The position numbers and the translations under genes were made by a program. Positions 2,317 through 61,543 of a DNA stretch of 64,000 nucleotides are shown piece by piece. Each line of letters begins with the position of its first letter. The first letter of the stretch is position 1. Below the pieces are notes generated by a model. That model made no database searches, had not been told where the DNA came from, and saw nothing but the letters and a program-made list of their open reading frames with translations. The stretch is from positions 1 to 64,000 of the forward strand of contig NZ_JANQOO010000028.1 in the NCBI RefSeq assembly GCF_028285715.1, given 5' to 3'. Source of the stretch: Ulvibacterium sp. GTDB lineage: Bacteria > Bacteroidota > Bacteroidia > Flavobacteriales > Flavobacteriaceae.

Positions 2317-3843
2317 ATGATTACAGGTAAAAATTATATAGGAAACAGATTATCCGGGGAGGGGGATAAAACCCATCATACGGTCAATCCCAAACTTAAC
2401 ATAGAAAATCCAACAGAGTTTGTTGAAGCCACTCCGGAGGAATTGGAAGAGGCGGTAAGCCTGTCCGAAAAAGCTTTTCAGACCTACAAGAAGATTTCTG
2501 GAGGTAAAAGAGCGGTATTTTTGAATACTATTGCGGACGAGATAGATGCGCTCGGCAATGAGTTGATACAGATGTATTGTGCCGAATCGGGCTTGCCCGA
2601 AGGCAGGGCTGCTGGAGAGCGGGGGAGAACTGTTTTTCAACTTCGCGCATTTGCCAAAATGGTGAGGAAGGATGATTGGCGACAGAATGTAATAGATGTT
2701 GGCCAGCCGGATAGGAATCCCTCACCCAAACCGGACCTTAGGAAAACTTCGATTCCCTTGGGCCCGGTTGTGGTATTTGCGGCCAGTAATTTTCCATTAG
2801 CCTTTTCTACCGCTGGAGGAGATACGGCCAGTGCTTTGGCAGCCGGATGTCCGGTTATCATAAAATCGCATGCGATGCACTCCGGTACTGGGGAGTTGGT
2901 TGCCTCAGCGATAATTAAAGCTGTCAAGAAAACTGGGATGCCCAATGGTGTTTTTTCCAATATTACGGGTCGAGGTAGAACAGTGGGACAGGCGTTGGTA
3001 AAACATCCCAAGATAAAAGCTGTTGGGTTTACAGGAAGCATTGCGGGAGGTAGGGCTTTGTTCGACTTGGCTGCCCAGCGCAATGAACCGATACCCGTAT
3101 TTACAGAGATGGGTAGCATCAATCCAGTGGTAATAACTTCCAATGCGTTGGATTCCAGGGCTGAAGAAATTGCCACTCAATATGCGGGTTCTATCACTCT
3201 AGGTACGGGTCAATTCTGCACCAAGCCGGGATTAATTTTAACCGTTGAAAGTGAATGGACACAAGTCTTTATAAAGGATTTGGCAAAAAAGACCATTAGT
3301 ATAGAAGCACAATGCATGTTGCACCCTAACATCAAGGATGGGTACGTTGAGAATGGGAATTTAGTGTCACAGCAAAAAGGTGTTACCGTAATGGGTAAAA
3401 TTGATACTCTCTTAGGAGAAAACTATGCCGCTAGTCAGGTAAATGCGGTATCAGGAAGTGATTTTATTTCCAATCCAAAAATGCATAGCGAGGTATTTGG
3501 ACCATTTTCCTTGGTGGTAATCTGCAAAGATGAGAAAGAGCTCATTTCTGCTATTAATCACTTGGAAGGGCAGTTGACCGGAACCATTATGGCAGAAGAA
3601 AGTGATAAAGAAACTCTTGGAGAGGTAGTGGATGCACTGCAAAGCAGGGTAGGAAGAATTATTTTTAATGGCGTGCCCACAGGAGTGGAAGTAAGCGGGG
3701 CAATGACCCATGGAGGACCATATCCAGCGTCTTCGGACTCAAGGTTTACTTCTGTAGGGCTCGAGGCCATTAAGAGATGGGTAAGACCATTTACATATCA
3801 AGGATGGCCCAAGGAGATGCTGCCCGATTATTTACAGGATTGA
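2317..3843 (+). CDS. NADP-dependent aldehyde dehydrogenase, alpha-ketoglutarate semialdehyde dehydrogenase type
   Basis: A 508-residue ALDH superfamily enzyme. Catalytic cysteine C301 (GTGQFCTKPG), general base E264 (FTEMGSINP) and oxyanion asparagine N158 (FAASNFPLAF) are all present, and the KSHAMHSGTGE segment fits the NADP-preferring ketoglutarate-semialdehyde branch. The predicted reaction is alpha-ketoglutarate semialdehyde to 2-oxoglutarate, the last step of hydroxyproline, glucarate and pentose oxidation. It follows the DapA-family gene in the same operon. The next gene is 217 nt away behind a structured leader, so the operon probably ends here. Confidence 0.85.
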   Translation: MITGKNYIGNRLSGEGDKTHHTVNPKLNIENPTEFVEATPEELEEAVSLSEKAFQTYKKISGGKRAVFLNTIADEIDALGNELIQMYCAESGLPEGRAAGERGRTVFQLRAFAKMVRKDDWRQNVIDVGQPDRNPSPKPDLRKTSIPLGPVVVFAASNFPLAFSTAGGDTASALAAGCPVIIKSHAMHSGTGELVASAIIKAVKKTGMPNGVFSNITGRGRTVGQALVKHPKIKAVGFTGSIAGGRALFDLAAQRNEPIPVFTEMGSINPVVITSNALDSRAEEIATQYAGSITLGTGQFCTKPGLILTVESEWTQVFIKDLAKKTISIEAQCMLHPNIKDGYVENGNLVSQQKGVTVMGKIDTLLGENYAASQVNAVSGSDFISNPKMHSEVFGPFSLVVICKDEKELISAINHLEGQLTGTIMAEESDKETLGEVVDALQSRVGRIIFNGVPTGVEVSGAMTHGGPYPASSDSRFTSVGLEAIKRWVRPFTYQGWPKEMLPDYLQD

Positions 3844-3898
3844 TAATAAATATCATAGAATAAAGAATAAATATAAAATAACCAACCCATTATAATTT

Positions 3899-3926
3899 GC
3901 AGCAATGCTGCTATAGCTTATTTTTT
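3899..3926 (+). terminator. possible weak terminator after the dehydrogenase gene
   Basis: A small perfect hairpin (GCAGC at 3899-3903, three-base loop, GCTGC at 3907-3911) is followed nine bases later by a run of six or seven T. The gap between stem and T-run makes it a poor intrinsic terminator. It is nevertheless the only such structure between the ALDH stop and the leader that starts at about 3931. Confidence 0.25.
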
Positions 3927-3930
3927 AGCA

Positions 3931-4031
3931 TAAGGAAGACATTGGAAAAATAAGTGACTTTGCTTACGGATAAATCTCCGTATACCTTAACCACCTGTTG
4001 TTGGTTTTGTGGCATGCGGAGATTTTGTTTT
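3931..4031 (+). promoter_or_regulatory. structured leader / candidate transcription attenuator, copy 1
   Basis: This element is shared with 45607-45702. It begins with TAAGGAAG (3931), then an upstream hairpin TACGGA (3965-3970) / TCCGTA (3977-3982). The 3' half of that hairpin overlaps the left arm of a long alternative stem: 3973-3986 (AATCTCCGTATACC) pairs with 4011-4024 (GGCATGCGGAGATT) at 13 of 14 positions including one G-U. An inner stem AACCA/TGGTT lies inside it, and a T-rich tract (4023-4031) follows. The two hairpins exclude each other, as in an attenuator or riboswitch expression platform. The gene start at 4061 is 29 nt after the T tract. Differences from the other copy keep the pairs intact. 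The class and ligand are unknown to me. Confidence 0.6.
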
Positions 4032-4060
4032 AGGATAATACAGTTATTCGATACATTATT

Positions 4061-5863
4061 ATGGAACTAAGACAAACTTTTAGACGCTTTTTGACCTTTT
4101 TGATGGTCATACCCATCTATTGGGCAATGGGTTGTAAACAAAAGCCAAAGGAGATGGTAAGTAAGCCTGGGAATTCAACTTCTGAAAACAGCCAAAGTCC
4201 TATGATTGCCTTTTGGTCCGAAAAAGATGGCAATCCGGAAATCTATTCCATGCGGATTGATGGTTCTGACCTTATCCGCCTAACGCACAATGAAAAAGCA
4301 GAGGATTCCTATCCGGTATTCTCGCCTGATGGGACCAAGATTGTATTCGAATCCAATAGAACTGGAAACTTCGAGATTTATATAATGGATGCAGATGGGA
4401 GCAATCAAATAAGGTTAACGGATACCCCTGAAGATGAAGTATCGTCCTCTTGGTCACCAGATGGTTCAAAAATTGTTTTTGTTTCTTTTAGGGATGGGGA
4501 AACCTCGGAGGTTTATGTGATGGATGCAGACGGTTCAAATCAAATAAGGCTGACATATAACGACTTTGATGATGAAGCTCCGCATTTTTCTCCAGATGGT
4601 AAACATATTGCCACAGAATCTGGTCAAGAGCGCGAGAGGAGGCAAATTTATGTGATGAACGCAGATGGAACCGACCATAACTCCATTACCCAAATGGAAG
4701 CGTATCAGGGCTATCCTACGTGGTCGGTAGATGGTTCCAAGATTTATTTTGATTCCACTTTCAACGATGGTGGGCTTTACAGTATTAATCCAGATGGTAC
4801 GGGTCTTGCTCAAATGGCAGAAAATCTCACGGGAACTTTTATAAGCCAGGCACCTGACGGGTCACAATTACTTTTTGTGGGCGTTAAAAAGGGAGCGGAA
4901 GATTTTGGGTTGTATCTGATAGACAATGATGGGAAATTTCCAACAGCCTTAAAAAATATAGACTTTGAAGTTATTGCACCTACATGGAACCCAGGTAGTT
5001 TTAGCGGCATTTCCTTACCTAAAAAAATCCAAAAGATTGCTTTTCATTCCAATCGGGATGGAAATACTGAGATCTATTCCATTCATGTAGATGGCAGCCA
5101 TGAGCGACGATTAACAGAAAATAACGCCTACGATGGCTTTCCATCTTGGTCCCCGGACGGAAAACAAGTTCTATTTCAATCTGATAGGGGTGGGGAGCTG
5201 TGCATCTACATGATGGATATGGATGGTGCCAATGTCAGGAAAATACCCAATACGCAAGGAGGTAATTATGCAAAATGGTCCAGGGACGGCTCTAAAATTG
5301 CCTTTTTTGCGGAAAGAAATGACAATACGGAAATTATAATGGTCAATCCAGATGGCTCCAATCCCGTAAACCTTACCAATAACGCTGCAAACGATGAAAC
5401 TCCAAGTTGGACGAGTGATGGACAAAAAATTGTATTTCAGACGAATAGAGGTAATGTTCGGAAGGTGGGCGAAAATGGAGACGTTCAAAGAGCCAATTAT
5501 GATATTTATATCATGGATGCCGATGGTTCTAACCAAACCCGGATAACCGGTTTTGAAACCAATGACGAGAATCCATCTATTTCACCAGACGGTACACAGG
5601 TGGTATATCAATCTTATATTGATAATGGATTGGCCATTGTGGTAGTGGACACTGATGGTTCCAATAAACGCATTTTGACGGACGCCGTTCCCCCCAGCGG
5701 TTCGCCAGCGTGGTCAGGAGACGGAAATAAAATCGCTTTTGATTCCATGCGAGATGGAAACTTTGAAATTTTCACGATGAACGTTGATGGGACTGAACAG
5801 AAACAGCTCACATTTACCGAGGGGGAGGTTGAGAATTCAGGGGCTTCATGCACACAGTATTGA
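4061..5863 (+). CDS. PD40/TolB-like beta-propeller lipoprotein
   Basis: A 600-residue protein with a lipoprotein signal (hydrophobic run then AMGC, Cys at about residue 25) and roughly eleven PD40 repeats of the type S-PDG-(S/K)-KIVFxS-RDGNxEIY-MDADGSN-xRLT. These repeats make TolB-like propellers. There is no N-terminal TolB domain and no TolB-Pal operon nearby, so it is not the Tol-system protein. It is the first gene of the operon running to 14623 and lies 29 nt behind the structured leader. It probably sits on the periplasmic or outer face of the outer membrane and binds proteins or peptides. Similar but shorter propellers occur at 8833 and 12160. Confidence 0.85.
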   Translation: MELRQTFRRFLTFLMVIPIYWAMGCKQKPKEMVSKPGNSTSENSQSPMIAFWSEKDGNPEIYSMRIDGSDLIRLTHNEKAEDSYPVFSPDGTKIVFESNRTGNFEIYIMDADGSNQIRLTDTPEDEVSSSWSPDGSKIVFVSFRDGETSEVYVMDADGSNQIRLTYNDFDDEAPHFSPDGKHIATESGQERERRQIYVMNADGTDHNSITQMEAYQGYPTWSVDGSKIYFDSTFNDGGLYSINPDGTGLAQMAENLTGTFISQAPDGSQLLFVGVKKGAEDFGLYLIDNDGKFPTALKNIDFEVIAPTWNPGSFSGISLPKKIQKIAFHSNRDGNTEIYSIHVDGSHERRLTENNAYDGFPSWSPDGKQVLFQSDRGGELCIYMMDMDGANVRKIPNTQGGNYAKWSRDGSKIAFFAERNDNTEIIMVNPDGSNPVNLTNNAANDETPSWTSDGQKIVFQTNRGNVRKVGENGDVQRANYDIYIMDADGSNQTRITGFETNDENPSISPDGTQVVYQSYIDNGLAIVVVDTDGSNKRILTDAVPPSGSPAWSGDGNKIAFDSMRDGNFEIFTMNVDGTEQKQLTFTEGEVENSGASCTQY

Positions 5864-6916: not shown

Positions 6917-7882
6917 ATGATTACGTTAAAGCACATACAGGATGCGTATAAAAATATCCAAAGCGATATCCGCCGGACGCCCTTGGTTTATTCCCAGGAG
7001 TTGAGCGAGATTTCCAAAGCCAATGTTTATTTAAAGCTTGAAAATTTTCAAAAAACAGGATCTTTCAAGATTCGTGGAGTCCTGAATAAGTTGTATGGTC
7101 TCAATGAGGAAGACTTCAAAAAGACCTTTGTTGCCGCTTCAACCGGAAACCATGCGGCTGCTTTTGCCTATGCTTCTAAACACTTCGGATTTGAAGGTGT
7201 TTTGGTCCTTCCTGAAAGAATTACAAAAGCCAAAGTAAAGGCCATTGAAAACTATGATGTCAAAAAAATATTTTATGGCAAAAACAGCTTGGAGGCCGAG
7301 GAAAAAGCGACTGAAATATCCCGTCAACAGAATGCTGTATTGGTCCATCCCTATAACGACGCAGAAATTATCGCCGGCCAAGGAACTTTGGGCATGGAGA
7401 TAAAAGAGCAATTCCCTGACGTGGCGTATATTTTGGCCCCAGTTGGCGGTGGGGGACTTATATCAGGCCTGTGTTCCTATTTCAAGGAATCATCATCCGT
7501 AAAAGTAGTGGGATGCCAGCCCGTGAATGCCGCGGAAATGTATGAATCCATCCAAAATGGAAGTATTGTTTCCCCAAGTACAAAAGATACCATTTCAGAT
7601 GCCACTGCCGGGGGAATAGAAAAGGATGCCATAACCTTTGACATCTGCAAAGAGTATAAGCTCTATTTTGAATTGTTGACCGAAGAGGCGATAAAGAAAG
7701 CCCTTGGTTTCATCATAAAACATCATGAAATGGTCATAGAACCTGGAGCATCATTACCAGTGGCAGCATTGATGAACAGTTCAAAATATCGAGGAAAAAA
7801 TGTTGTATTGGTACTGACCGGTAAGAAAATAAACAAAGAACTATTAAATAACATTATGAAAGATGATGGCTTCGATAATTAA
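6917..7882 (+). CDS. threonine-dehydratase-family PLP enzyme (EutB/BhcB-like hydroxyamino-acid dehydratase)
   Basis: A 321-residue fold-type II PLP enzyme. The PLP lysine is K51 (KTGSFKIRG), the substrate loop is ASTGNHAAA and the phosphate cup is PVGGGGLISG. It has no C-terminal ACT domain, so it belongs with the short serine racemase / 3-hydroxyaspartate dehydratase group rather than biosynthetic IlvA. It overlaps the following ornithine-cyclodeaminase-family gene by 20 nt. The same pairing occurs as EutB/EutC in hydroxyectoine use and as BhcB/BhcD in the beta-hydroxyaspartate cycle, where 3-hydroxyaspartate is dehydrated to iminosuccinate. That function is inferred; other hydroxy- or diamino-acids are possible. 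Confidence 0.82.
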   Translation: MITLKHIQDAYKNIQSDIRRTPLVYSQELSEISKANVYLKLENFQKTGSFKIRGVLNKLYGLNEEDFKKTFVAASTGNHAAAFAYASKHFGFEGVLVLPERITKAKVKAIENYDVKKIFYGKNSLEAEEKATEISRQQNAVLVHPYNDAEIIAGQGTLGMEIKEQFPDVAYILAPVGGGGLISGLCSYFKESSSVKVVGCQPVNAAEMYESIQNGSIVSPSTKDTISDATAGGIEKDAITFDICKEYKLYFELLTEEAIKKALGFIIKHHEMVIEPGASLPVAALMNSSKYRGKNVVLVLTGKKINKELLNNIMKDDGFDN

Positions 7883-8822
7883 TAAGAAAGAGATTTTGGA
7901 TATAGTAGATTCTGTTGATGTGACCTCGGCCATGGAAAAAGGGTTTGTTGCCTATAGTGCCGGAAAAACCGTGGTACCACCGGTGGCAGAACTACTTTTC
8001 GAAGAACCTAAGGGCGAAACACATATTAAATATGGATATATTAAGGGTGAAGAGTTCTTTTGTGTAAAGATAGCTTCGGGTTTTTACGGGAATACGAATT
8101 TCGGCATCTCTAGTAGTCAGGGTTTGATGTTGCTCTTTAATCAAAAAACAGGGGAGACAAGGGCCGTACTCTTGGATGATGGCCATCTTACCAATATCAG
8201 GACGGCCGCGGCTGGTGCTTTGGCCGCGAAGTATTTCGCTCCAAGGAAAATCAAAAGTGTTGGGATAATTGGAACAGGAATCCAAGGAAGATTGCAATTG
8301 TTGCATCTTCAAAAAGAAAACCTCTCTAAATCAGTATGGGTTTGGGGTAGAAATAAGGATGGAGCAATGAAATATAAAGAAGAGCTAGAGGGAGACTTTG
8401 ATATCCAAATTGCGGAAAGTCCATCCGAGTTGGCGGCGAATTGCAACCTTATCTACACAACGACTCCAGCAGAGAACCCTTTGTTGAAAGCCACCGATAT
8501 TCTACCCGGAACACATATTACCGCTGTGGGTTCCGATACTCCGGACAAACAGGAATTGGAAGGAGAACTGGTTGGAAAAGCGGATATCGTAATAGCCGAT
8601 AGTATTCCGCAAAGTCAAAGTAGGGGAGAGATTTATCGAGCGGTAAAAGCGGGTAAACTTAATCCTGAAAAAGTGGTGGAACTGGGCAATGCCATTCAAA
8701 ATAAAGCACTTCAGAGAAGTAATGATAATCAAATAAGCGTAGTGGACCTTACCGGTGTAGCCGTGCAGGACATTATGATTGCCGAGGCTGTGTACAAGGC
8801 CTATCAAGATTTGAAAAATTAA
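7863..8822 (+). CDS. ornithine cyclodeaminase/mu-crystallin family reductase (EutC/BhcD-like)
   Basis: A 319-residue protein with a Rossmann dinucleotide motif (GIIGTGIQG), the family lysine in FFCVKIASG, arginine in [10 protein letters not shown] and the terminal DLTGVAVQD motif. Two ATG codons (7863 and 7866) lie inside the end of the dehydratase gene, which implies translational coupling. With the upstream dehydratase the likely role is reduction of an imine, iminosuccinate to aspartate in BhcD, or of a ketimine; a true ornithine cyclodeaminase or pyrroline-2-carboxylate reductase cannot be ruled out. It is cytoplasmic and 10 nt before the next gene. Confidence 0.82.
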
Positions 8823-14640: not shown

Positions 14641-16392
14641 TTAGGATTTATTCCTTTCCTTTTGGATTAGGTAATTCTCCCAAGACTGTAAGCGAGTTAT
14701 TTCAACAGCGTCTGAGAGCGCATAGCTCTCCGATAAAAAAGAGGTCACGGACTCGCCATTCTCCAAAAGAACCTTACCAAAACTTAATGGAGCTCCTACT
14801 TGATGTATAAACCCACCCAATTTTGTGCTTGGAACCTTCCAAATTTCTACTTCAATTTTACCTCCGTTATCCGGATCTCTTATCAGACCTGGTCTAGGTG
14901 GTTCCATGTGTTCCAAGGCAAAGAAACGATACTCGGAAAGCGTAAAGGAGGTAGTCTTAAAGACCGCACCTATTTCTGTCAATTGATAGTTAAGTGCCCC
15001 GCCTTTTTTATGTGCCCCACAAACTGCCAAATCTATGTAGTCCACGGAATTGTCAGAAAGATTTAAGAGCTTGTCTTGGCAAAGGGTGTTTGCCAGGTTT
15101 AACAGATGTTCATCTTGGAATGCCACACTAAACAGTGTTATGCCGAAGGGTAGGTTGCCTTCCTCAATACTTACCGGAAGTGCTATGGCCGAACAATCCA
15201 AAAGGTTCATAAAGTTTGTGTAGTACCCCAGGTTGGAGTTTAGTGCGACAGGGTTTTCTTGAACTTCAGTCTTGGTATAAATCGTTCCAGTTGTGGGCAT
15301 GATAAAACTCTTATAAAGTGCTGCGTATTTCTCAAATTCTTTTTTGAATCGGGCAAGGTTGTATTCCGCTTCAAAATAATCGATTGCCGATGGATTCTTT
15401 CCATTAAGGATAATACTGCCCACGGTTTTATCCACATGTTCCAAATTTTTTTCGATAAAAGCGCCAACAGCATGGTACCTTTCCGCTACCCAAGGGCCAT
15501 CATATAATAGCTTTGCCGCATTTAACATGGGCGAGAAATCAATGGTCTTTACTTCATAGCCTTTTTGCTTAAGCCCTTCAATAAAATTGCTATACGCTCT
15601 TTCATAGCTATGGTTCCCGAAAAATGACAGATTATCCTCTCTTGGGACAGCTATCGTTTTAAGGGGAACAATCTCTGATCCATTGTAGTACTTTCGACTA
15701 TAGGGATCATTGATGTCATAAACGGCCATAAGGCGAAGTACTTTCGCCGCATCCTCCAATACATTGGCGAATATGGTAATGCAATCCTGGGATTTACAAG
15801 CGGGAACCACCCCAACGTTTGATACGGTACCTTTTGTGGGTTTTAGGCCTATTAGATTCTGGAAGGCCGCCGGGACACGTCCCGAACCAGCGGTGTCCGT
15901 CCCCAATGAAAAAGGAGCGTAACCGGAGGCTACGGCACTTGCGGAACCTGAGCTCGATCCCCCTGGAATATAATCTTTATTAAAGCTATTTGTGGCTGTG
16001 CCGTATGGGGAGCGTATACCTACTAACCCTGTGGCAAATTGGTCCATATTACCCTTGCCAATACAAATAGCACCGGCTTGTTCCAATTGCTTCACCGCAA
16101 ATGCAGACTCTTTTGGGGTATAGGAGTAAGCCAAGCAGCCTGCGGTTGTATTGAACCCGTCTACATCTATATTGTCCTTTACCACGAAGGGAACTCCTAG
16201 AAGTGGGTGTCCCTCTAAGGATAATCCTTTGATGTTGTCTAATTTTTTTTGGAGGTTTTCTAGGGAAAGCGCACTTATAAAAACGTGTTCCTCTTCAAAA
16301 CGAGATAAGATATCCTCTTGGTTGGTTAATAGGGTGTTTTTAAAAACCTCGAAATCATTCAACAAGAGACCCTGTATTTCCTTGATAGTCAT
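14641..16392 (-). CDS. atzF: allophanate hydrolase
   Basis: A 583-residue protein with an N-terminal amidase-signature domain (about 1-430: K72 in VVKDNID, S146 in PGGSSSGS, S170 in DTAGSGRV) and the C-terminal domain typical of AtzF/DUR1 (about 460-575: VCGAHKKGGALNYQL, APLSFGKVLLENG). It converts allophanate to ammonia and CO2. It is the last gene of the minus-strand operon, 2 nt after the carboxylase gene. The C-terminal domain and the neighbours separate it from general amidases such as that at 13025. Confidence 0.93.
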   Translation of the reverse strand: MTIKEIQGLLLNDFEVFKNTLLTNQEDILSRFEEEHVFISALSLENLQKKLDNIKGLSLEGHPLLGVPFVVKDNIDVDGFNTTAGCLAYSYTPKESAFAVKQLEQAGAICIGKGNMDQFATGLVGIRSPYGTATNSFNKDYIPGGSSSGSASAVASGYAPFSLGTDTAGSGRVPAAFQNLIGLKPTKGTVSNVGVVPACKSQDCITIFANVLEDAAKVLRLMAVYDINDPYSRKYYNGSEIVPLKTIAVPREDNLSFFGNHSYERAYSNFIEGLKQKGYEVKTIDFSPMLNAAKLLYDGPWVAERYHAVGAFIEKNLEHVDKTVGSIILNGKNPSAIDYFEAEYNLARFKKEFEKYAALYKSFIMPTTGTIYTKTEVQENPVALNSNLGYYTNFMNLLDCSAIALPVSIEEGNLPFGITLFSVAFQDEHLLNLANTLCQDKLLNLSDNSVDYIDLAVCGAHKKGGALNYQLTEIGAVFKTTSFTLSEYRFFALEHMEPPRPGLIRDPDNGGKIEVEIWKVPSTKLGGFIHQVGAPLSFGKVLLENGESVTSFLSESYALSDAVEITRLQSWENYLIQKERNKS

Positions 16393-16394
16393 AT

Positions 16395-19300
16395 CTAAGC
16401 GGTTTTAATGATAAATAAGTAGTCCCCTGAATGTATTTCCTTGCCCTCTTCTGTACAAACATCGGTTACTTTGCCGCTAGCGGTACTTAAGATATTCATT
16501 TCCATTTTCATGCTTTCCAATATAGCAATGGGCTGTTCAAGTTCAATGGTGTCGCCTTCTTTTACTAATAGTTTCCATACAACCGCGGAAAACGGGGATG
16601 AAATACCCTCTGAACCTTCTGGGATTTCTATGCTGGCTGAGTCTTCGGCCATGTTTTCCTCTTGGCTAAAGGTTAGCTTGCCCGAGCGTATCCATTCTTC
16701 CTTTTCCATTTCAAAGGCTTCCTTTTGTCTGCGTTGAAATGATTCAATGCTTGCTTGGTTTTCGCTGAGGAACTTTTTGTAATCGGAAAGGCTAAAAGTA
16801 GTCTCTTCTATCTTTAGTGGATATCTACCTTGTGGAAAATCCCTGCGGATTTGTAACAGTTCTTCGGCCGATACTAAATAGAACTTTATTTGATCAAAGA
16901 AACGAAGTAGGAAGGGTTTTTCATTCGTAAAATGAATTCCTTTTGGGTAGGTGTTCCACATTTGCAGGGTTCTGCCGAACAACTGATACCCTCCAGGGCC
17001 TTCCATGCCATAAATGCAAAGATATGCGCCCCCTATCCCAACGGCATTTTCTGGGGTCCAGGTTCTGGCAGGATTATACTTTGTGGTCACAAGGCGTTTT
17101 CTTGGATCTAGAGGGGTCGCAATTGGGGCTCCTAGATATACGTCGCCCAAACCTATGACCAGATAGTTGGCACCCAAGATAGTATCCTGCACTTCTTGTA
17201 TGGAACCAAGGCCGTTGATTCTGCGAATAAACTCAATATTGTCCGGGGACCAGGGCGCATCGGAACGGACAGTGGTATGGTACTTTTCCATAGCCAGTTT
17301 GGCCTGGGGGTCGTTCCAGCTTAAGGGTAGATGTACAATTCTAGAGGGCACCGAAATATCCCTGCTATGTTCTAGTCCGGTAAGAATTTGTGCTGTTTTT
17401 TCCAGTAATACGCTACGATCCAAGAGATTGGCATCAAAATGAATTTGTAAGGAGCGTACCCCGGGAGTCAAATCAATGACACCTTTTAGGCCTTCATTGC
17501 GAAAGGCCTCAAAAATCTTGTGGATAATCAATCTCAACTCCAGATTTAACTCAAGGGCCCCGATTTCTATCAACAGGTTGTCATCTCCGGACTGACGTAC
17601 GATAACTTGATTTTCCTTATAAAAAAACTGGTCCAGGATAGGTGTCGCGTCTTTCAAATGGATACCTGCGCTTTGTGGTATTTTTTTTCCTAGGTTCTTT
17701 ATAAAAAGTTCTTCCGCCTTCTCTTTTGCCAAGGCCTGCTCGTACGAAACGAGGTTAAATCTGATTTTGGATTTGGATGATAGCTGTCCTACTTTCCACA
17801 AGTCCGCCTTTATGATGGTAAAGGGGCAAACAAACCCGCCCAAGCTTGGGCCATCAGGCCCTAATATTATGGGTGTATCACCTGTAAAATCTATGGTGCC
17901 AACGGCATAGGCATTGTCATGGATATTGGAGGGGTGTAGACCAGCTTCCCCTCCGTCGTCCCTTGTCCACTCAGGGGAAGGTCCTAACAATCTTACACCG
18001 GTACGGGAGGAATTAAAATGGATGCTCCATTCGGCATCAAGGAACTTCTGAAGATACGCTTCCGTAAAAAAATCGGGTGCCCCATGGGGACCATACATAA
18101 GGTCTAGGGTAATGTCCTCGGGAATCTTAGGAAAAACTAATCGGGATGCCATAGCCTGGCCATGATATTCGTTGAGGTGTATTACATCCCCTACCTTTAA
18201 AACTCTTCCATTATGACCTCCCATAACGCCCAAGGAAAACGTAGACTTGCTTCCCAAATATTCTGAAACGTCCAATCCACCGCCAAATAGAAGGTAACTT
18301 CGTTGGCCAGCATCCGTAATTTTTCCAAGAGACAGTATATCACCCTTTTGAGCTGTATAAACGGTATAATTTAAGATGGTCTTATCCCCTAAGGTGGCTC
18401 CAATTCGGGCTCCTGTTATGGTAAAAGTAGTGGTTCTTCTAAATTGTATACGCGGTCCCACAAGAGTAATCTCCAATCCGGCAGTATTTTCAGGATTGCC
18501 AAGAAGCACATTTCCGATCCTAAATGAGCGATTATCCATAGGCCCCGATGGAGGGATGCCGACCATCCAATAGCCGAGTCTTCCCGGATAGTCCTGAATG
18601 GTAGTGAAAGTTCCTCCGTCCAAAATATCCAAGGCATTGCTCCGGTATTGAAAATCGTCCAGGAATTTGGTGGATATTCTACCTGAAGCGAACTCTTCAC
18701 TTTGGGCGATACTCGTAAGGAATTCCAGATTGGTCTCAACACCTTCCACCTTGGATGAGGCTAAAACTGCTGCGGCTCTCTTCACACACTCTTCCCGGTT
18801 TTTTGCCTTAATGATTATTTTGGCCAGCAACGGGTCGAAGAATGGGGAAACTTCAGACCCTTCTCGGACCCAACCGTCGATTCGTGCCGTTTCAGGAAAA
18901 CCTATTTTGGTTATTTTCCCGGTAGCTGGCATGTAGTTTTTGTAGGGGTCTTCGGCGTATAATCTAAACTGCATTGCAGCCCCAGTGGGAGATAGGTTTT
19001 CCGGAAACACAAAACGGCCTTCCTGTAACAGTATCATGGCCTCTACGATATCTATACCGAATACTTCCTCGGTAATCGTATGTTCAACTTGTAAACGCGT
19101 ATTTACCTCCAGAAAATAAAATTGCAGATCGAACTCATCGTATAAAAATTCGATAGTACCGGCACTTCTATACTTTATAAGCTTCATTAGGTTTTTGGCA
19201 CCTTGGTACAGCTTTTCCCTTATTTCATTTGGTATGTTCGGTGCGGGGGTCTCCTCTATAATTTTTTGGGAACGCCTCTGAATAGAGCAGTCCCTATCCC

Positions 19301-19970
19301 CCAAGACAAGGCCGCCGCCTTCGCCATCCCCAAAAATTTGCACTTCTACATGTCTTGCCTTGACCAAGAATTTTTCTAGGAATACCCCTCCATTGGAAAA
19401 GTTCTTTTGGGCAAGGGATATGGTGGAATGGAATGCCTCTTTCAATGTTTGGAGCGAGTAGCATATGTGCATGCCAATGCCGCCTCCCCCTCCAGTACTT
19501 TTTAAAATAACGGGAAAGCCTAGTCTTTTGGCTGCGATTTCCGCTTCGGTCAATGAAGAAAGCAAGGGCGTACCTTTAAGAATGGGCAAATCGCTTTTAA
19601 GAGCTATTTTTCGAGCCTCGTGTTTTAGTCCAAAAGCCTGGATTTGATCTGAGGTGGGGCCAATAAAGGTCACACCTATTTTTTCCAGGGAGTTGGCAAA
19701 AACAGTATTTTCACTGAGTAGTCCGTAGCCCGGATGCACCCCATCGATACGGTATTTTTGCACAACCTCCAATATCCGCTCAATGTTCAGGTAGGTTTCG
19801 GAAACCGTTCCGGAACCTATAAAATGGGCTTCATCAGCCTCAAGCATGTGGGCGGTATTTGTGTCTGCCTCATTATAAATAGCCACAGCCACTTTCCCCA
19901 TTTTTTTTAGGGTACCGATTATACGTACAGCTATTTCCCCACGGTTAGCAATAAGAATTCTCTGCATCAT
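16395..19970 (-). CDS. biotin-dependent carboxylase, probable guanidine carboxylase (annotated family: urea carboxylase)
   Basis: A 1191-residue protein. Biotin carboxylase domain 1-445 (ATP-grasp GGGGGIGMH, QRRSQKIIEE), carboxyltransferase subdomain of the KipA/AHS2 type about 455-755, KipI/AHS1 type about 785-1005, and biotinyl domain about 1115-1191 with the biotinylated lysine K1155 (ESMKMEM). In the carboxyltransferase site the motif is YAVGTIDFTGD with Asp694. Fungal urea carboxylases, as I recall, have Asn at this position and the bacterial enzymes shown to carboxylate guanidine have Asp. Together with the two DUF1989 genes just upstream, this favours guanidine as substrate. A second Met at residue 2 is an equally good start. 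Confidence 0.9.
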   Translation of the reverse strand: MMQRILIANRGEIAVRIIGTLKKMGKVAVAIYNEADTNTAHMLEADEAHFIGSGTVSETYLNIERILEVVQKYRIDGVHPGYGLLSENTVFANSLEKIGVTFIGPTSDQIQAFGLKHEARKIALKSDLPILKGTPLLSSLTEAEIAAKRLGFPVILKSTGGGGGIGMHICYSLQTLKEAFHSTISLAQKNFSNGGVFLEKFLVKARHVEVQIFGDGEGGGLVLGDRDCSIQRRSQKIIEETPAPNIPNEIREKLYQGAKNLMKLIKYRSAGTIEFLYDEFDLQFYFLEVNTRLQVEHTITEEVFGIDIVEAMILLQEGRFVFPENLSPTGAAMQFRLYAEDPYKNYMPATGKITKIGFPETARIDGWVREGSEVSPFFDPLLAKIIIKAKNREECVKRAAAVLASSKVEGVETNLEFLTSIAQSEEFASGRISTKFLDDFQYRSNALDILDGGTFTTIQDYPGRLGYWMVGIPPSGPMDNRSFRIGNVLLGNPENTAGLEITLVGPRIQFRRTTTFTITGARIGATLGDKTILNYTVYTAQKGDILSLGKITDAGQRSYLLFGGGLDVSEYLGSKSTFSLGVMGGHNGRVLKVGDVIHLNEYHGQAMASRLVFPKIPEDITLDLMYGPHGAPDFFTEAYLQKFLDAEWSIHFNSSRTGVRLLGPSPEWTRDDGGEAGLHPSNIHDNAYAVGTIDFTGDTPIILGPDGPSLGGFVCPFTIIKADLWKVGQLSSKSKIRFNLVSYEQALAKEKAEELFIKNLGKKIPQSAGIHLKDATPILDQFFYKENQVIVRQSGDDNLLIEIGALELNLELRLIIHKIFEAFRNEGLKGVIDLTPGVRSLQIHFDANLLDRSVLLEKTAQILTGLEHSRDISVPSRIVHLPLSWNDPQAKLAMEKYHTTVRSDAPWSPDNIEFIRRINGLGSIQEVQDTILGANYLVIGLGDVYLGAPIATPLDPRKRLVTTKYNPARTWTPENAVGIGGAYLCIYGMEGPGGYQLFGRTLQMWNTYPKGIHFTNEKPFLLRFFDQIKFYLVSAEELLQIRRDFPQGRYPLKIEETTFSLSDYKKFLSENQASIESFQRRQKEAFEMEKEEWIRSGKLTFSQEENMAEDSASIEIPEGSEGISSPFSAVVWKLLVKEGDTIELEQPIAILESMKMEMNILSTASGKVTDVCTEEGKEIHSGDYLFIIKTA

Positions 19971-19977
19971 AGGTAAA

Positions 19978-20604
19978 TCAAGGCTCCGAGATAATAACTT
20001 CTATTGGTGTAGGATTGTAAGCGTTACAAGGATTGTTTAGCTGTGGACAATTACTTATTATACATAACACATCCATCTCGGCTTTTAATTGTACATATTT
20101 CCCAGGGGCCGAAATTCCATCTGAAAAAGTGGACTTCCCATCAGGGGATATGGGCACATTCATGAAGAAATTAATATTGCTGTTCAGATTGTTTTTGCCC
20201 AAGGAAACGTCGAATTCCCTTAATGCTGCCATAAAGTTATCCCTGCAATTATGCATGTGTCTTTTGTCCAAAGGATAACGCACCGAATTGCTTTCGGCGG
20301 CACAGGCACCACCAAGGGTGTCGTGCCGACCACAGGTATCTTCGGTTATTGTAAGAAGAACGTTGCCCAAATTGGAAATCAGTTCACTGCCTATGGTGAG
20401 GTAAACATTGTTTTGGTGTCTTATAGTGTCTTGTGCACTATAGCGCTCAAGGGTATCCTTGGCATTGTAGAACATGGTGTCCGCAGCTTGGTTGCCTTCA
20501 AGATCTACAATAGTGAAATTCTGTCCTTTTTTAATTACATGGGACCAGTAATCACCCGCTAAAATGACTTTTCTATATATGGATTGTGTAGTTGTTATAC
20601 TCAT
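19978..20604 (-). CDS. DUF1989 protein, probable carboxyguanidine deiminase subunit
   Basis: A 208-residue DUF1989 protein, traditionally called urea carboxylase-associated protein 2. Cys and His residues likely to bind metal are visible in [14 protein letters not shown] and near the C-terminus in [10 protein letters not shown]. In Pseudomonas, paired DUF1989 proteins (CgdA and CgdB) form a deiminase that turns carboxyguanidine into allophanate, the link between guanidine carboxylase and allophanate hydrolase. Both partners are here, 7 nt apart, and the carboxylase follows after 7 nt. Which partner is CgdA was not decided. Confidence 0.85.
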
Positions 20605-20611
20605 ATTTGAT

Positions 20612-21334: not shown

Positions 21335-21339
21335 AAGTG

Positions 21340-21774: not shown

Positions 21775-21825
21775 GAATGCGTTTTTTGTCTCTAGAAAGT
21801 AAGACTTTGCTATCAGTCCAAGAAT

Positions 21826-21851
21826 CAAATATAGTGGTTTGGGCAAAACAA
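21826..21851 (-). promoter_or_regulatory. candidate Bacteroidota promoter of the guanidine/allophanate operon
   Basis: On the minus strand a perfect TAnnTTTG box (TATATTTG, 21833-21826) is preceded after 15 nt by TTG (21851-21849), close to the -33/-7 consensus of this phylum though with a short spacer. Transcription would start about 45 nt before ATG 21774. A second weaker pair (TTG, 17 nt, TACTTTC) lies nearer the gene. Confidence 0.35.
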
Positions 21852-45531: not shown

Positions 45532-45606
45532 TTTTTTTGAAGTAAATTTCATATATTTATTTAGGATGAAATGATGTGGCAAAAGCCACCCATATATTTT
45601 CCAACT

Positions 45607-45702
45607 TAAGGAAGAAAATAGGGAAAATAGATGGATTTCTTACGGAAAACCTCCGTATACCTTAATCAATATATGATTGGGTGTATGGAGGTTTTTTGTT
45701 TT
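45607..45702 (+). promoter_or_regulatory. structured leader / candidate transcription attenuator, copy 2
   Basis: Second copy of the 3931-4031 element. TAAGGAAG begins at 45607. The upstream hairpin TACGGA (45641-45646) / TCCGTA (45652-45657) overlaps the left arm of a 14-pair stem: 45648-45661 (AACCTCCGTATACC) with 45680-45693 (GGTGTATGGAGGTT), all positions paired with two G-U. The inner stem is AATCA/TGATT, and the tract TTTTTTGTTTT (45692-45702) follows. Compared with copy 1, T-A has become C-G in the outer stem and C-G has become T-A in the inner stem, so base pairing is what is conserved. The EF-hand gene starts 28 nt later. A small GTGGC/GCCAC hairpin lies just upstream at 45576-45589. 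Confidence 0.62.
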
Positions 45703-45730: not shown

Positions 45731-46795
45731 ATGAAGAATTTAAGTAGACTATGTGTCTTTTTAGTGATTCAGTGTTTATGGAGTCAAGATCAAGTCCTAA
45801 CCGTACTGGATGCCAATAAGGATGGTGTGCTTGACCCTTATGAAGCCTTGGATGTACTGTTAACAATCCAAAAGAAGAGCAACGGGGAACTAACGTTTTC
45901 TTCCCTTGTTGAATTGGCGCAGCGAAAAAAACAAGCGGACGAACAGGAAGTGCTTGAAATGTTCGAGGGTTTTGAGCAAGATAATAATGGAAATGTTATC
46001 CTTTCCAAGTTAACCGGGGAAATGACCTCTTTTGCCAAAATGATGGATGATAACGAAGATGGTTTACTTTCTATGGCCGAAGCCTTCGCCTTTGATATGG
46101 AAGATGCGCTGTTGGCTGATGAGGAAGAAATCCAAGAACGTACGGAAGGCATTCTCAAAGAATACAAAGCCGTGAACGATGCTTTTAAGTTGGAGAGGGT
46201 TCCCAAAAGAAAAAGGGGTCGGTTTATGGAATATGATAAAAACAAAGATGCGGTAATAACAAAGGAAGAATTATTGAACTTTTTTATGGCGGATAATATT
46301 CCCGTCAAATTTAAAGTAAATGGAAAAACAGCCTATATGACCGGGGTTATAACCACAGCTTTGCCTGCAACGGTATTACGTCTTTTAAATGAACACCCTG
46401 AAGTAGACACCATCGAAATGTTGACCGTACCAGGATCCATAGATGATGAAGCAAATATCCGCGCTGCCTTCTACGTGAACAAAGCTGGGTTGACCACCAA
46501 ATTAAATGCCAAGAGCACTGTGGCATCCGGAGGAACGGATTTTTTTATGGCCGGAAAAAAGCGAATTGTGGAGGAAGGCGCTTATTTGGGCGTGCATTCC
46601 TGGGGTGGAGGCCCAGTTCCCGCAACCGAAGTGCCAAAAGATGACCCGGTCCATGTAAAATATCTAGAGTTTTATGAAGCCGTAGGGGTTCCAACTTCAT
46701 TTTACTGGTATACCCTTGAAGTGGCTCCGGCAGAAGGGATGCATAAAATGACTGCCGAAGAAATTGAAAAATACAAGGTACGTAAATCTGAATAA
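45731..46795 (+). CDS. secreted EF-hand protein fused to a ClpP/crotonase-fold domain (COG3904-like)
   Basis: A 354-residue protein with a signal peptide (to about WSQDQ). The N-terminal half has EF-hand loops such as DANKDGVLDPYE, DDNEDGLLSMAE and DKNKDAVITKEE. The C-terminal half (about 190-350) resembles the periplasmic ClpP-fold proteins: PGSIDDEANIRAAF for the oxyanion strand and VASGGTDFFMAG with the likely nucleophile Ser, then LGVHSWGGG. It may be a calcium-regulated periplasmic serine hydrolase (inference). The start at 45731 is chosen because it gives the signal peptide and sits 28 nt after the leader. It begins the long operon and is 2 nt before the first SUMF1 gene. Confidence 0.72.
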   Translation: MKNLSRLCVFLVIQCLWSQDQVLTVLDANKDGVLDPYEALDVLLTIQKKSNGELTFSSLVELAQRKKQADEQEVLEMFEGFEQDNNGNVILSKLTGEMTSFAKMMDDNEDGLLSMAEAFAFDMEDALLADEEEIQERTEGILKEYKAVNDAFKLERVPKRKRGRFMEYDKNKDAVITKEELLNFFMADNIPVKFKVNGKTAYMTGVITTALPATVLRLLNEHPEVDTIEMLTVPGSIDDEANIRAAFYVNKAGLTTKLNAKSTVASGGTDFFMAGKKRIVEEGAYLGVHSWGGGPVPATEVPKDDPVHVKYLEFYEAVGVPTSFYWYTLEVAPAEGMHKMTAEEIEKYKVRKSE

Positions 46796-47891: not shown

Positions 47892-47893
47892 TC

Positions 47894-59075: not shown

Positions 59076-60194
59076 ATGAACATTCCAATCTTTGAACTGG
59101 AAAGGGTTCAATCCCTTTTTGAAAACACAGTGGACTATAACCTTACCGAAAGTGGGTTCCATCCCTATACCTTAAAGGAGTTTTTGACCAAGGAAGAAAT
59201 TGAAGCACTGACCAATACTGTATTGGGTTACGGACAGACCAATGGTTCCATCCCACTAAGAAAAAGGATAAGCGCATTGTATAATGGAGCAGACGAGGAC
59301 AGCGTTTTGGTGACCAATGGTTCATCCGAAGCGAACTTTGTTGCTTGTCATACCCTATTGGAAAAAGGGGACGAGGTAGTAATGATGGTGCCCAATTATA
59401 TGCAGATTTGGGGTATTGCCGAGGAGATGGGCTGTACCTTAAAGAGCTTTCCTCTTATTTCGGAAAACAATTGGAGGCCTGATCTAGACGACCTAAGAAG
59501 CAAAGTGACTGCCAAGACCAAAATGATTGCGCTGTGCAATCCCAACAATCCCACAGGATACACGCTGAGCAATGAAGAAATGCAAGAAATTGCGGATATC
59601 GCCAAAAGTGTGGATGCATGGGTATACTGCGATGAGGTTTATCGTGGTGCGGAGCTCAATGGAAAGACCATTGAAAGTTTCGTGGGCATGTACGAAAAGG
59701 TGATGGTCAACGGCGGGCTTTCCAAAGCCTATGCACTGCCCGGTCTGCGATTGGGGTGGTTGGTCGGTCCCAAAGAATTGATCGAGGATACATGGGCCTA
59801 CCACGATTACACCTCTATTACTGCTGGCATTATGAGTCACTACATTGGCGAAATTGCCCTACGCCCGGAAAGACGGGAACAAATTCTTGAACGGAACAGG
59901 ACCATGCTCAACGAGAACCTGAAAGTGGTGCGAGGCTGGTTGGATGGTTATGGGGACTTGTTCGAGTATGTACCCCCCAAAGGAGGCGGTATGTTGTTCA
60001 TAAAATACAATTTGGACATCATTTCCTCCGATTTGGCAGAATGGCTCCGTATCGAGAAAAGTGTTTTCATTCTTGCGGGGGATGTATACGGAATGGACAA
60101 GCATTTTAGAATAGGAATAGGCGAACGAAAGGAATATATATTAAATGGCCTGGAACGAATTAAGGATGCTTTAAAAGAGCGATTTAATCTTTAA
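59076..60194 (+). CDS. class I/II aminotransferase (PLP)
   Basis: A 372-residue fold-type I aminotransferase: CNPNNPTGYTL, YCDEVYRGAE, the PLP lysine in NGGLSKAYALPGLRLGW and a C-terminal arginine in KHFRIGIGERKEY for the substrate carboxylate. It has no signal and is cytoplasmic. It lies 2 nt before the YfcC-type carrier gene, so the carrier probably brings in the amino acid that this enzyme deaminates. Substrate unknown. Confidence 0.88.
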   Translation: MNIPIFELERVQSLFENTVDYNLTESGFHPYTLKEFLTKEEIEALTNTVLGYGQTNGSIPLRKRISALYNGADEDSVLVTNGSSEANFVACHTLLEKGDEVVMMVPNYMQIWGIAEEMGCTLKSFPLISENNWRPDLDDLRSKVTAKTKMIALCNPNNPTGYTLSNEEMQEIADIAKSVDAWVYCDEVYRGAELNGKTIESFVGMYEKVMVNGGLSKAYALPGLRLGWLVGPKELIEDTWAYHDYTSITAGIMSHYIGEIALRPERREQILERNRTMLNENLKVVRGWLDGYGDLFEYVPPKGGGMLFIKYNLDIISSDLAEWLRIEKSVFILAGDVYGMDKHFRIGIGERKEYILNGLERIKDALKERFNL

Positions 60195-60196
60195 AT

Positions 60197-61543
60197 ATGT
60201 TAGGAAAGGTAAAGTTCCCGGATGCATTGCTATTGCTTTCCATTTTTATCCTGGCTGCGATGATAGCCACCTATGTGGTACCTTCGGGCAAGTTTAAAAG
60301 AACGGTTAACGAAGCTTCGGGAAGGGAGGTGGTTGTTCCGCATTCGTTTGAACAGACCGAGGCGGCACCAGTCGGATTTTTTAATATGTTGGTAGCCATC
60401 CCGAAAGGTATGCAGCAAGCAGCCTCCGTAATCTTCTTTGTTTTTTTGGTTGGGGGATCGTTTGTGGTAATCAACAAAACGGAGGCCTTGCATGCTGGAG
60501 TGGAATATATTGCTGTAAAGTTCAGTTCCCATGAAATGTGGGTCATTCCAATTTGCATTGTCCTTTTTGCGGCATTGGGCGCCATCCAAAATTTTCAAGA
60601 GGAAATTATCCCATTGGTGCCCATTCTGCTATTGTTGTGCAAGCGAATGGGGTTCGATAACCTCACGGCAGTGGCCATAAGTCTTGGAGCTGCCATGGTA
60701 GGGGCATCCTTTAGCCCCATTAACCCCTTTCAAGTAGGGATAGGTCAAAAAATATCGGATGTACCCCTGCTTTCTGGAGCATTGTTCCGGACTGTTTTTT
60801 TGGTGATAGCCGTTCTCATTTATTCCATTGTTGTGTTCCGAAGGGCATTTAAGACCAAAACGGCAGGAGAAACGACCCAGGTAATGGAATCAGGTTCGTT
60901 TTCCATAGCTCATAAACTAATTCTGTTGGTGGTGGCCCTATCGTTTGTTTTTTTGGTCATGGGGGTATCGCAGTGGGATTGGGATTTTGAGCAAATGACG
61001 GCCTTGTTTTTTCTTACAGGGATCGTTTGCGCGATAATTGCCGGATTTGGCGCCAATAGAACCATAAATGCTTTCGTGGAAGGATTTCGGGATATGGCCT
61101 ATGCGGGTTTACTGATTGGATTTGCCAGGGCAATTTATGTGGTGCTCGAGGAAGGGCTCATTTTGGATTCGTTGGTAAATAGTCTCTTCGTGCCCATTTC
61201 CCAAATGCCAAAAATGGTTGCGCTTACGGGGATTACCTTGGCAGAATCCTTGGTGCATTTCCCAGTTCCCAGCGTAAGTGGGCAAGGGGTGCTAACCATG
61301 CCGTTGCTGGCATCTTTGGCAGATTTAATGGAAGTGCCTAGACAATTGATGATCCTGTGTTATCAATATGGGGCGGGCACTGCAGAACTGATTACCCCAA
61401 CCAACGGTGCGTTGATGGCGGTTTTGTCAGCCAGTAGGGTGTCCTTTGCCAAATGGATCAAATTTTCCATAAAGGCCTATGTGATTTTGGTGCTATTGGG
61501 TATTGTGGCCATTTACATTGGGCATAGCATTGGGTATTCATAA
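60197..61543 (+). CDS. YfcC-family (ArcD/DcuC-like) membrane carrier
   Basis: A 448-residue integral membrane protein with about 12 helices. Family motifs: MIATYVVPSGKFKR near the N-terminus, ALGAIQNFQEEIIPLVPI, GASFSPINPFQVGIGQ, and YGAGTAELITPTNGALMAVLSASRVSF near the C-terminus. YfcC proteins are predicted basic-amino-acid or C4-dicarboxylate exchangers. Coupled by a 2-nt gap to an aminotransferase, it likely transports an amino acid or the matching keto acid. Confidence 0.85.
   Translation: MLGKVKFPDALLLLSIFILAAMIATYVVPSGKFKRTVNEASGREVVVPHSFEQTEAAPVGFFNMLVAIPKGMQQAASVIFFVFLVGGSFVVINKTEALHAGVEYIAVKFSSHEMWVIPICIVLFAALGAIQNFQEEIIPLVPILLLLCKRMGFDNLTAVAISLGAAMVGASFSPINPFQVGIGQKISDVPLLSGALFRTVFLVIAVLIYSIVVFRRAFKTKTAGETTQVMESGSFSIAHKLILLVVALSFVFLVMGVSQWDWDFEQMTALFFLTGIVCAIIAGFGANRTINAFVEGFRDMAYAGLLIGFARAIYVVLEEGLILDSLVNSLFVPISQMPKMVALTGITLAESLVHFPVPSVSGQGVLTMPLLASLADLMEVPRQLMILCYQYGAGTAELITPTNGALMAVLSASRVSFAKWIKFSIKAYVILVLLGIVAIYIGHSIGYS

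What the first reader, a model, noticed from the sequence alone, without database searches (positions are those of the whole stretch)
3931..4031. Leader RNA copy 1 with mutually exclusive hairpins, heading the first SUMF1/propeller operon
Directly visible: a TACGGA/TCCGTA hairpin whose 3' half overlaps the left arm of a long stem followed by a T-rich tract, ending 29 nt before a start codon. This is the layout of a transcription attenuator or riboswitch. A second copy at 45607-45702 shows compensatory changes, and the two copies sit exactly at the heads of the two long operons carrying SUMF1 and propeller genes and nowhere else in the window. Ligand or trigger unknown.
Basis: partly seen in the sequence, partly recalled or inferred. 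Interest (0 to 1): 0.8.

Follow-up and report, generated by a model that had tools for sequence, protein, structure and literature searches.

The report
New pseudoknotted riboswitch candidate in Bacteroidota
A small folded RNA at the start of two operons in this bacterium, also found in related species, looks like a new metabolite sensor that switches on genes for handling an amino acid that has not been identified.

Summary
Both copies are real. The terminator reuses the 3' strands of P3 and of the pseudoknot, so aptamer and terminator exclude each other. P0 and P1 covary strongly, P3 in four copies; the pseudoknot is almost invariant and untested. Two divergent copies keep the fold and seem to use a start-codon hairpin instead.

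Of 44 non-redundant copies, 42 lie upstream of one gene set: threonine-dehydratase-like, ornithine-cyclodeaminase-like, PRK07324-like aminotransferase, or a secreted peptidase-like family; the other two head propeller operons. SUMF1 and propeller genes are a local feature.

Best reading: a ligand-induced ON riboswitch with no Rfam 15 match, lacking the guanidine-IV-like core, but sharing gene types with the orphan Gd4v motif. No true Gd4v RNA was available for comparison. Ligand unknown; a hydroxylated or guanidino basic amino acid is my guess. No binding or switching was shown.

The parts
3899..3911 (+). copy 1, P0 hairpin (GCAGC/GCTGC)
   Evidence: sequence; P0 has changes on both sides in 4 of 4 scored pairs over 44 copies; in copy 1 the model aligned this region differently and one P0 pair fails, so P0 is least certain here
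3916..3955 (+). copy 1, P1 stem (3916-3926 with 3945-3955) closing the conserved loop
   Evidence: 10 of 13 pairs with changes on both sides over 44 copies
3931..3939 (+). copy 1, conserved loop TAAGGAAGA; TAAGG is the 5' strand of the possible pseudoknot
   Evidence: invariant in the 7 copies known before any pattern required it; later pattern searches demanded most of it
   Evidence: 5 of 6 pairs with changes on both sides, all from four copies L085, L095, L145, L146
3985..3989 (+). copy 1, CCTTA, 3' strand of the possible pseudoknot
   Evidence: complementary to 3931-3935; invariant, so not tested by covariation
3972..4031 (+). copy 1, intrinsic terminator (5' arm overlaps P3 and CCTTA) and U-rich tract
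4061..5863 (+). first gene after copy 1: PD40 beta-propeller protein
   Evidence: Pfam
6917..8822 (+). PALP threonine/serine-dehydratase-like gene (6917-7882) and ornithine-cyclodeaminase-like gene (7863-8822), conserved partners, in the operon of copy 1
45576..45589 (+). copy 2, P0 hairpin (GTGGC/GCCAC)
45590..45634 (+). copy 2, P1 stem (45590-45602 with 45622-45634) around loop TAAGGAAGA at 45607
45641..45657 (+). copy 2, P3 hairpin
45660..45664 (+). copy 2, CCTTA, 3' strand of the possible pseudoknot
45643..45702 (+). copy 2, intrinsic terminator (20-bp stem 45643-45662 with 45679-45698) and U-tract
45731..46795 (+). first gene after copy 2: EF-hand protein of the secreted ClpP-like family
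   Evidence: Pfam EF-hand; tblastn link to that family
59076..61543 (+). PRK07324-like aminotransferase (59076-60194) and YfcC-like basic amino-acid antiporter (60197-61543), in the operon of copy 2
   Evidence: both below the NCBIfam cut-offs

Best explanation
The element is a cis-acting riboswitch, undescribed as far as I could search. Shown by sequence and alignment: the leader can fold as P0, then P1 with a highly conserved purine-rich loop, then P3; the last conserved block, UACCUUA, is complementary to the P1 loop (pseudoknot). The strands that complete P3 and the pseudoknot are also the 5' arm of a strong terminator. Inferred: RNA polymerase first makes P0-P1-P3; if the ligand is present it locks P1 loop, pseudoknot and P3 together, the terminator cannot form and the operon is transcribed (ON switch); without ligand the terminator wins. 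Two divergent copies appear to use the same aptamer to free a start codon instead. Inferred ligand: an unusual amino acid handled by the PALP, imine-reductase and aminotransferase enzymes; my guess is a hydroxylated or guanidino basic amino acid.
For: Covariation: 44 copies, 95.5% of 1263 cells paired, 20 of 29 pairs with changes on both sides, 0 of 500 shuffles as high on any measure, slid controls 33-51%; a plain MAFFT alignment of 43 rows, before the divergent copies, agrees. Found without pattern bias: R1 gave strong matches in 5 of 298 other family genomes, E 3e-7 to 1e-11; R2 gave L095, with a compensatory P3 change, and scores the two divergent copies L145 and L146, not in the model, at 48.1 and 45.8 bits. 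Mutual exclusion: in 42 of 42 main-group copies a 14-bp arm made of the P3 3' strand and its flanks finds a downstream partner, 585 of 588 cells paired, followed by a T-rich tail. Prefix folding keeps P3 until the terminator's 3' arm emerges in both window copies. Promoter: TAnnTTTG 50-85 nt before TAAGG in 28 of 44, against 65 of 2050 random positions. Gene link: 42 of 44 have PALP, OCD, AT or the ClpP-like family downstream on the same strand, 1 of 44 upstream. No conserved leader peptide.
Against: No ligand, binding or switching was shown. The pseudoknot varies only once (outer pair, L066), and the pattern searches demanded most of it. P3 covariation rests on four copies, two of them fitted by the model. 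In one search the partner arm was chosen to maximise pairing, and partners swapped between copies still pair 13.2 of 14 (observed 13.9), so the terminator's own covariation is modest. The terminator scan had no random control. In both window copies the terminator fold is far more stable than the P3 fold without pseudoknot (-37.8 vs -29.8 and -52.6 vs -34.4 kcal/mol), so the ON state needs kinetic or ligand help that was not modelled. Copy 1 has a weak P0; neither window copy has an exact TAnnTTTG in the expected place. The 44 copies are not independent (many close Aquimarina and Tenacibaculum sequences). R2 also gives 32.3 bits to a coding stretch (L167) and 29 to L096, so its weak matches are unsafe. 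One of three Bacteroidota genomes with the aminotransferase (G563) shows no element in the 19 kb around that gene. An RNA-binding protein could play the ligand's part.
Confidence: 0.75

Rival explanations
1. A protein-dependent attenuator: an RNA-binding regulator, not a metabolite, holds the P1 loop and P3 and decides between antiterminator and terminator.
For: The architecture (antiterminator exclusive with terminator) would serve a protein equally well; the invariant UAAGGAAGA loop could be a protein site.
Against: Invariance of both UAAGGAAGA and UCCGUAUACCUUAA in the first seven copies and a possible pseudoknot suit a ligand pocket better; I recognised no regulator among the 13 downstream gene families with two or more members, though an unlinked regulator would not show.
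Confidence: 0.13
2. It is a divergent member of the guanidine-IV / Gd4v riboswitch group.
For: Gd4v is also a two-hairpin pseudoknot RNA with a terminator, is also predicted in Bacteroidetes, and sits upstream of PRK07324 transaminases, which can share operons with OCD genes (PMC9788692); the elements here share those gene types.
Against: Four guanidine-IV-like leaders upstream of sugE-type genes (identified by eye) share TAGGCC..AG; TAGGCC is in 0 of the 44 elements with flanks, and R2 does not match those loci. Here P3 disrupts the terminator's 5' arm, whereas guanidine-IV was described as including the terminator stem in the bound form (PMC7736828 passages). No actual Gd4v sequence could be compared.
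Confidence: 0.05
3. Ribosome-mediated attenuation through a short leader peptide, or a T-box sensing a tRNA.
For: Weak Phe_leader matches in L040 and L037 (E 0.063 and 0.097, 32.3 and 31.4 bits against a gathering score of 55). An open frame with a possible start crosses the loop in 32 of 44 copies.
Against: The 34 such frames lie in two different phases (24 and 10), 26 start with TTG and only 4 with ATG, they stop at many different places, and 12 of 44 copies have none; there are 1-nt indels next to the loop. No T-box match.
Confidence: 0.03
4. A plain terminator or a dispersed repeat without regulatory role.
For: It does contain an intrinsic terminator.
Against: Only 2 copies in the genome; 42 of 44 copies lie upstream of the same gene families; P0 and P1, outside the terminator, covary; the fold persists in L145 and L146 without the usual terminator.
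Confidence: 0.02

Closest known systems
Gd4v motif (orphan variant of guanidine-IV riboswitches, Lenkeit et al. 2022, PMC9788692)
   Same: Hairpins plus pseudoknot with a terminator; inferred ON switch; associated with PRK07324-type aminotransferase and ornithine-cyclodeaminase-type genes; also predicted in Bacteroidetes; ligand unknown in that paper.
   Different: Gd4v is described as extremely similar to guanidine-IV in sequence; the core here is UAAGGAAGA / UAUACCUUA with no UAGGCC; extra P0 and a separate antiterminator P3. Gd4v is reported as gut-enriched; the named carriers here include many genera that I recall as marine. No Gd4v sequence was at hand for a direct comparison.
Guanidine-IV riboswitch (PMC7736828)
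   Same: Transcription-terminating ON-switch layout with pseudoknot.
   Different: Different conserved core in four guanidine-IV-like leaders found here by eye; regulated genes differ (sugE-type exporters most commonly).
Classical antiterminator riboswitches that act as ON switches, such as the adenine type (recalled)
   Same: An aptamer strand doubles as the 5' arm of the terminator.
   Different: Different fold, sequence and regulon.
Flavo-1 motif (Rfam)
   Different: Not among the matches at the thresholds used.

Membership tests
Riboswitch (as a kind) | conserved structured aptamer supported by covariation in the 5' leader | tested here: met
   (44 copies); promoter box at a fixed distance in 28 of 44
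Riboswitch (as a kind) | expression platform mutually exclusive with part of the aptamer | tested here: met
   (by sequence and folding, not by experiment)
Riboswitch (as a kind) | coherent regulon downstream | tested here: met
   42 of 44
Riboswitch (as a kind) | pseudoknot proven by covariation | tested here: inconclusive
   5 of 6 pairs invariant; pattern searches demanded them
Riboswitch (as a kind) | direct binding of a small ligand that changes expression | not testable with these tools
   needs in-line probing and termination assays
Guanidine-IV / Gd4v | conserved primary sequence of the guanidine-IV core (TAGGCC..AG in the leaders seen here) | tested here: not met
   0 of 44 elements hold TAGGCC; identification of those four leaders as guanidine-IV is by eye
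Guanidine-IV / Gd4v | similarity to true Gd4v RNAs | tested here: inconclusive
   no Gd4v sequence obtained; upstream of the 5 over-cut-off PRK07324 genes found in 299 genomes I recognised none (by eye; TAGGCC only in L106, within an upstream reading frame)
Guanidine-IV / Gd4v | Gd4v-type gene association (PRK07324 aminotransferase, OCD) | tested here: met
   NF005593 is the best NCBIfam hit of the L045 aminotransferase but below its cut-off (322.5 vs 476 bits), as is the window's (302.8)
Any of the 4227 Rfam 15 families | match at the gathering score | tested here: not met
   window: 0 matches; window 3801-4100 and 7 leader loci at E up to 10 show only sub-threshold matches
Leader-peptide attenuator | conserved short ORF with fixed frame overlapping the hairpins | tested here: not met
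T-box | T-box covariance model match | tested here: not met
   no T-box match
Dispersed repeat | many copies per genome without gene link | tested here: not met
   2 copies in the genome, gene link

The most novel reading that the evidence does not exclude
This RNA and the orphan gut motif Gd4v are two structurally unrelated riboswitch classes that sense the same undiscovered metabolite: a hydroxylated or guanidino basic amino acid degraded by a shared imine-reductase and PRK07324-aminotransferase pathway in Bacteroidota and gut bacteria.
Probability: 0.3. Interest if true: 0.87.

Novelty: new variant of a known kind. Interest (0 to 1): 0.72.

Why it matters
Riboswitches with unknown ligands point to metabolism nobody has described. 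This element gives a compact, covariation-supported aptamer with a clean ON/OFF assay (terminator read-through), a divergent branch with an apparently different expression platform, and a tight gene set. The Gd4v ligand was unidentified in the 2022 paper read here, despite screening. A second RNA with a different core and overlapping target genes narrows the ligand to something those genes have in common and offers an independent test of every candidate. Finding it would point to functions for the PRK07324-like aminotransferases, the linked ornithine-cyclodeaminase-like enzymes and a secreted ClpP-like/M28 peptidase family that I could not assign.

Tried and rejected
Leader-peptide attenuation: see rivals. 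Rfam family: none at gathering; Phe_leader matches are sub-threshold. Third copy in the genome (L011, E 0.0016): the match is the end of a reading frame followed by an ordinary terminator, rejected; R2 does not match it. L006, L007, L009, L014 (read) look like coding or start-codon regions, and R2 does not match them; the remaining rows (E 0.5 and above) were not read.

Dropped rows: R1 matches L041 and L042 (E 0.05, 0.07; read as coding by eye; R2 E 0.92); R2 match L096 (E 0.02, 29 bits; lacks the core); five of 46 matches (L060, L064, L071, L072, L089: no R2 match, where the other 41 match by construction, being in the model); three viral-contig matches (best R2 E 0.83). In one search, 66 of 397 genomes match the loose pattern and the reversed control also rings, so most are chance; of the loci fetched there, 25 besides the known copies and L145/L146 were run with R2: best L167, 32.3 bits, which lies inside a 515-aa reading frame, then L170 and L150 at E 0.08 and 0.25; all dropped. 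Matches without a fetched locus were judged by eye only. No plasmid copy. The phylum-wide R2 search scored only 10 candidates per genome and may have missed copies.

Gd4v comparison: I looked upstream of PRK07324 genes in the phylum of a Clostridia genome and on a Priestia plasmid without recognising a Gd4v RNA; L107 and L108 have T-runs and hairpin-like stretches 130-160 nt before the gene that I did not analyse. Rfam 15 found 3 Guanidine-I riboswitches and a tRNA in the 20 scanned of 30 sugE-type loci; three of the four guanidine-IV-like leaders were among the scanned and not matched, so absence from Rfam says little about that class.

Ligand ideas weighed: canavanine/homoserine (ThrB- and ThrC-like genes downstream of 4 and 6 of 44 elements; CtdA/canavanine passages), 5-hydroxylysine (LysO and YfcC transporters), hydroxyarginine (next-best aminotransferase families GntC and VioD; PDB 8fft second). 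None can be decided by sequence. The aminotransferase (E 1e-85) occurs in 3 of 345 genomes, none over the family's cut-off; 2 of the 3 carry the RNA: too few for a test.

One search covered a 70-residue fragment by mistake and found nothing; repeated with the full protein. Literature: searches listed no paper that I recognised, by title and abstract start, as describing this motif; passages of PMC11109978 were searched for flavobacterial terms with none found. The paper asked for and two others were not held and not seen.

Full report
Observation. Both copies are as described. A pattern drawn from them occurs twice in the window and twice in the genome, against none in shuffles or reversed. 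The copies are homologous (79% over 76 bp). The exact pattern was absent from 59 other related genomes, two congeners included.

Finding relatives. A covariance model built from only the two window copies (R1), run on 299 genomes of the same family (298 besides this one), gave strong matches in five other genomes (E 3e-7 to 1e-11); two weaker matches were dropped. All five keep UAAGGAAGA and UACCUUA and lie directly upstream of ornithine-cyclodeaminase-like or PALP genes. An exact pattern from these seven copies, scanned over one genome for each of 84,980 species, gave 46 matches in 45 stretches. I keep 41, in 35 genomes by my count of record titles, all Bacteroidota: Aquimarina, Tenacibaculum, Bizionia, Lacinutrix, Kordia, Maribacter, Flagellimonas, Winogradskyella, Marinifilum, Ancylomarina, Saprospiraceae and others. 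These 41 include the five genomes. Because that pattern fixed UAAGGAAGA, CGUAUACCUUA and so part of P3, those parts cannot be tested on these rows. A second model (R2), run on 395 phylum genomes, added L095; a looser pattern on 397 family genomes added L145 and L146. After removing two identical cores (L079, L087) there are 44 non-redundant copies, the two of the window included.

Structure. On the 44 copies: P0 4 of 4 pairs with changes on both sides; P1 10 of 13; P3 5 of 6, from copies L085, L095, L145 and L146 only; pseudoknot 1 of 6, with five invariant pairs. Overall 95.5% of cells pair, against 86.8% in shuffles and 33-51% when strands are slid. That alignment was fitted to the R2 structure and leans towards it; the plain MAFFT alignment of 43 rows (41 distinct) gives 93.1% against 87.6%, 14 pairs with changes on both sides, and P3 nearly invariant. 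L145 and L146 have largely different P1 and P3 sequences that still pair; R2 gives them 48.1 and 45.8 bits, above the best coding false match seen, 32.3 bits.

Switch. In 42 of 42 main-group copies a stem uses the 3' strand of P3 and the following ACC as its 5' arm, followed by a T-rich tail. 585 of 588 cells of a 14-bp arm pair, but the partner was chosen to fit and swapped partners still give 13.2 of 14 against 13.9, since most of the arm is conserved; the most variable pair occurs as C-G, T-A and A-T (22, 12 and 8 copies). Folding growing transcripts of both window copies, P3 is present in the best structure until the terminator's 3' arm appears, then is replaced. The pseudoknot is not in this energy model. 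In L145 and L146 I see no terminator of that kind; instead the P3 3' strand can form an 11-12 bp hairpin with the start codon (L145) or the stretch just before it (L146). The scan's T-tail rule also passed these two, with tails at or beyond the start codon, so a weak early terminator is not excluded; two cases in AT-rich DNA are suggestive only.

Transcript start. A TAnnTTTG box (recalled as the Bacteroidetes -7 consensus) lies 50-85 nt before UAAGG in 28 of 44 copies, 25 of them at 54-62, against 65 of 2050 random positions. Copy 2 has the near match TATATTTA; copy 1 has none in that interval. This puts P0 near the 5' end of the mRNA.

Genes. tblastn of representative proteins on the 9 kb downstream (less where the stretch ended) finds, for 44 elements: secreted ClpP-like family 29, OCD 25, PALP 24, aminotransferase 17, ThrC-like 6, ThrB-like 4, PD40 4, LysO 3, SUMF1 2, IMPase 2, YfcC 1 (copy 2's aminotransferase and YfcC lie beyond 9 kb and are not counted). 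42 of 44 have at least one of the first four. The two others, L052 (Flagellimonas) and L085 (Maribacter), head PD40 genes; L085 continues with SUMF1, a peptidase-like gene, PD40 and IMPase, without PALP or OCD in the 5.4 kb held. In both, genes resembling the window's DHDPS-type and aldehyde-dehydrogenase genes lie upstream as in the window. In the window the set is split: PALP and OCD with copy 1; ClpP-like, aminotransferase and YfcC with copy 2. The ClpP-like label is my recollection of COG3904; Pfam shows EF-hands or an M28 peptidase domain in the four such proteins scanned.

Ligand inference. The L045 aminotransferase's best NCBIfam hit is PRK07324 (322.5 bits, under its cut-off of 476), followed by GntC (gamma-hydroxyarginine cyclodehydratase) and VioD (capreomycidine synthase), also under cut-off. 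Its best PDB relatives are 3op7 (unnamed aminotransferase) and 8fft, the latter recalled as GntC. At E 1e-85 such a gene is present in 3 of 345 Bacteroidota genomes, including the window genome and G451, both carriers of the RNA. Lenkeit et al. 2022 (PMC9788692; abstract, Introduction, parts 1 and 2 of Results, Discussion and passages read) report the Gd4v orphan motif upstream of such transaminase genes in over half of cases, with COG2423 (OCD) genes in common operons, guanidine only weakly bound and ligand unknown. A shared guanidino or hydroxylated basic amino acid is the simplest common denominator I can offer, but it remains a guess.

Relation to guanidine-IV/Gd4v. Four leaders upstream of sugE-type genes resemble guanidine-IV by eye and share TAGGCC..AG. 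None of the 44 elements holds TAGGCC and R2 does not match those loci. I could not obtain a real Gd4v RNA, so non-membership is likely but not proven.

Verdict. A well-supported new riboswitch candidate: mechanism type known, ligand and pseudoknot open.

Noticed in passing
window 14641-21999, - strand: Allophanate hydrolase, urea carboxylase, UAAP2, UAAP1 and a NikR-like regulator in a row; such 'urea carboxylases' can be guanidine carboxylases. Its own leader was not studied.
   Followed up: partly
L078 1360-1455 and 2962-3059 (-); also L049/L063, L057/L079, L059/L090, L073/L087, L078/L086: Five of the 35 named genomes carry two or three copies of the element, in L078 in tandem with an aminotransferase gene between them.
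   Followed up: partly
L051, L048, L082, L091, L145, L146 (downstream of the element): A secreted ClpP-like domain family occurs alone, with EF-hands or followed by an M28 peptidase domain; it is the first of the searched families after the element in 25 of 44 cases.
   Followed up: partly
L115, L136, L121, L123: Guanidine-IV-like leaders upstream of sugE-type genes; L115, L121 and L123 were scanned with Rfam 15 at gathering threshold without a match; L136 was not scanned.
   Followed up: partly
L105 4050-4350 and 5700-5940: Priestia plasmid genes MATE / OCD / PRK07324-like aminotransferase / PhzF with two similar-looking upstream sequences and a PucR-type regulator gene nearby: possibly the same pathway under protein control.
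   Followed up: no
L103 8001-10691: In Pararhizobium the nearest plasmid relative of the aminotransferase (52% identity) is followed by a PAS protein and an OCD gene, with an inositol-monophosphatase gene a few kb upstream, recalling the window's operon 1.
   Followed up: no
window 46798-56248: Four FGE-sulfatase/SUMF1-domain genes lie among Sortilin/BNR propeller genes in the operon of copy 2; their role is unexplained.
   Followed up: no
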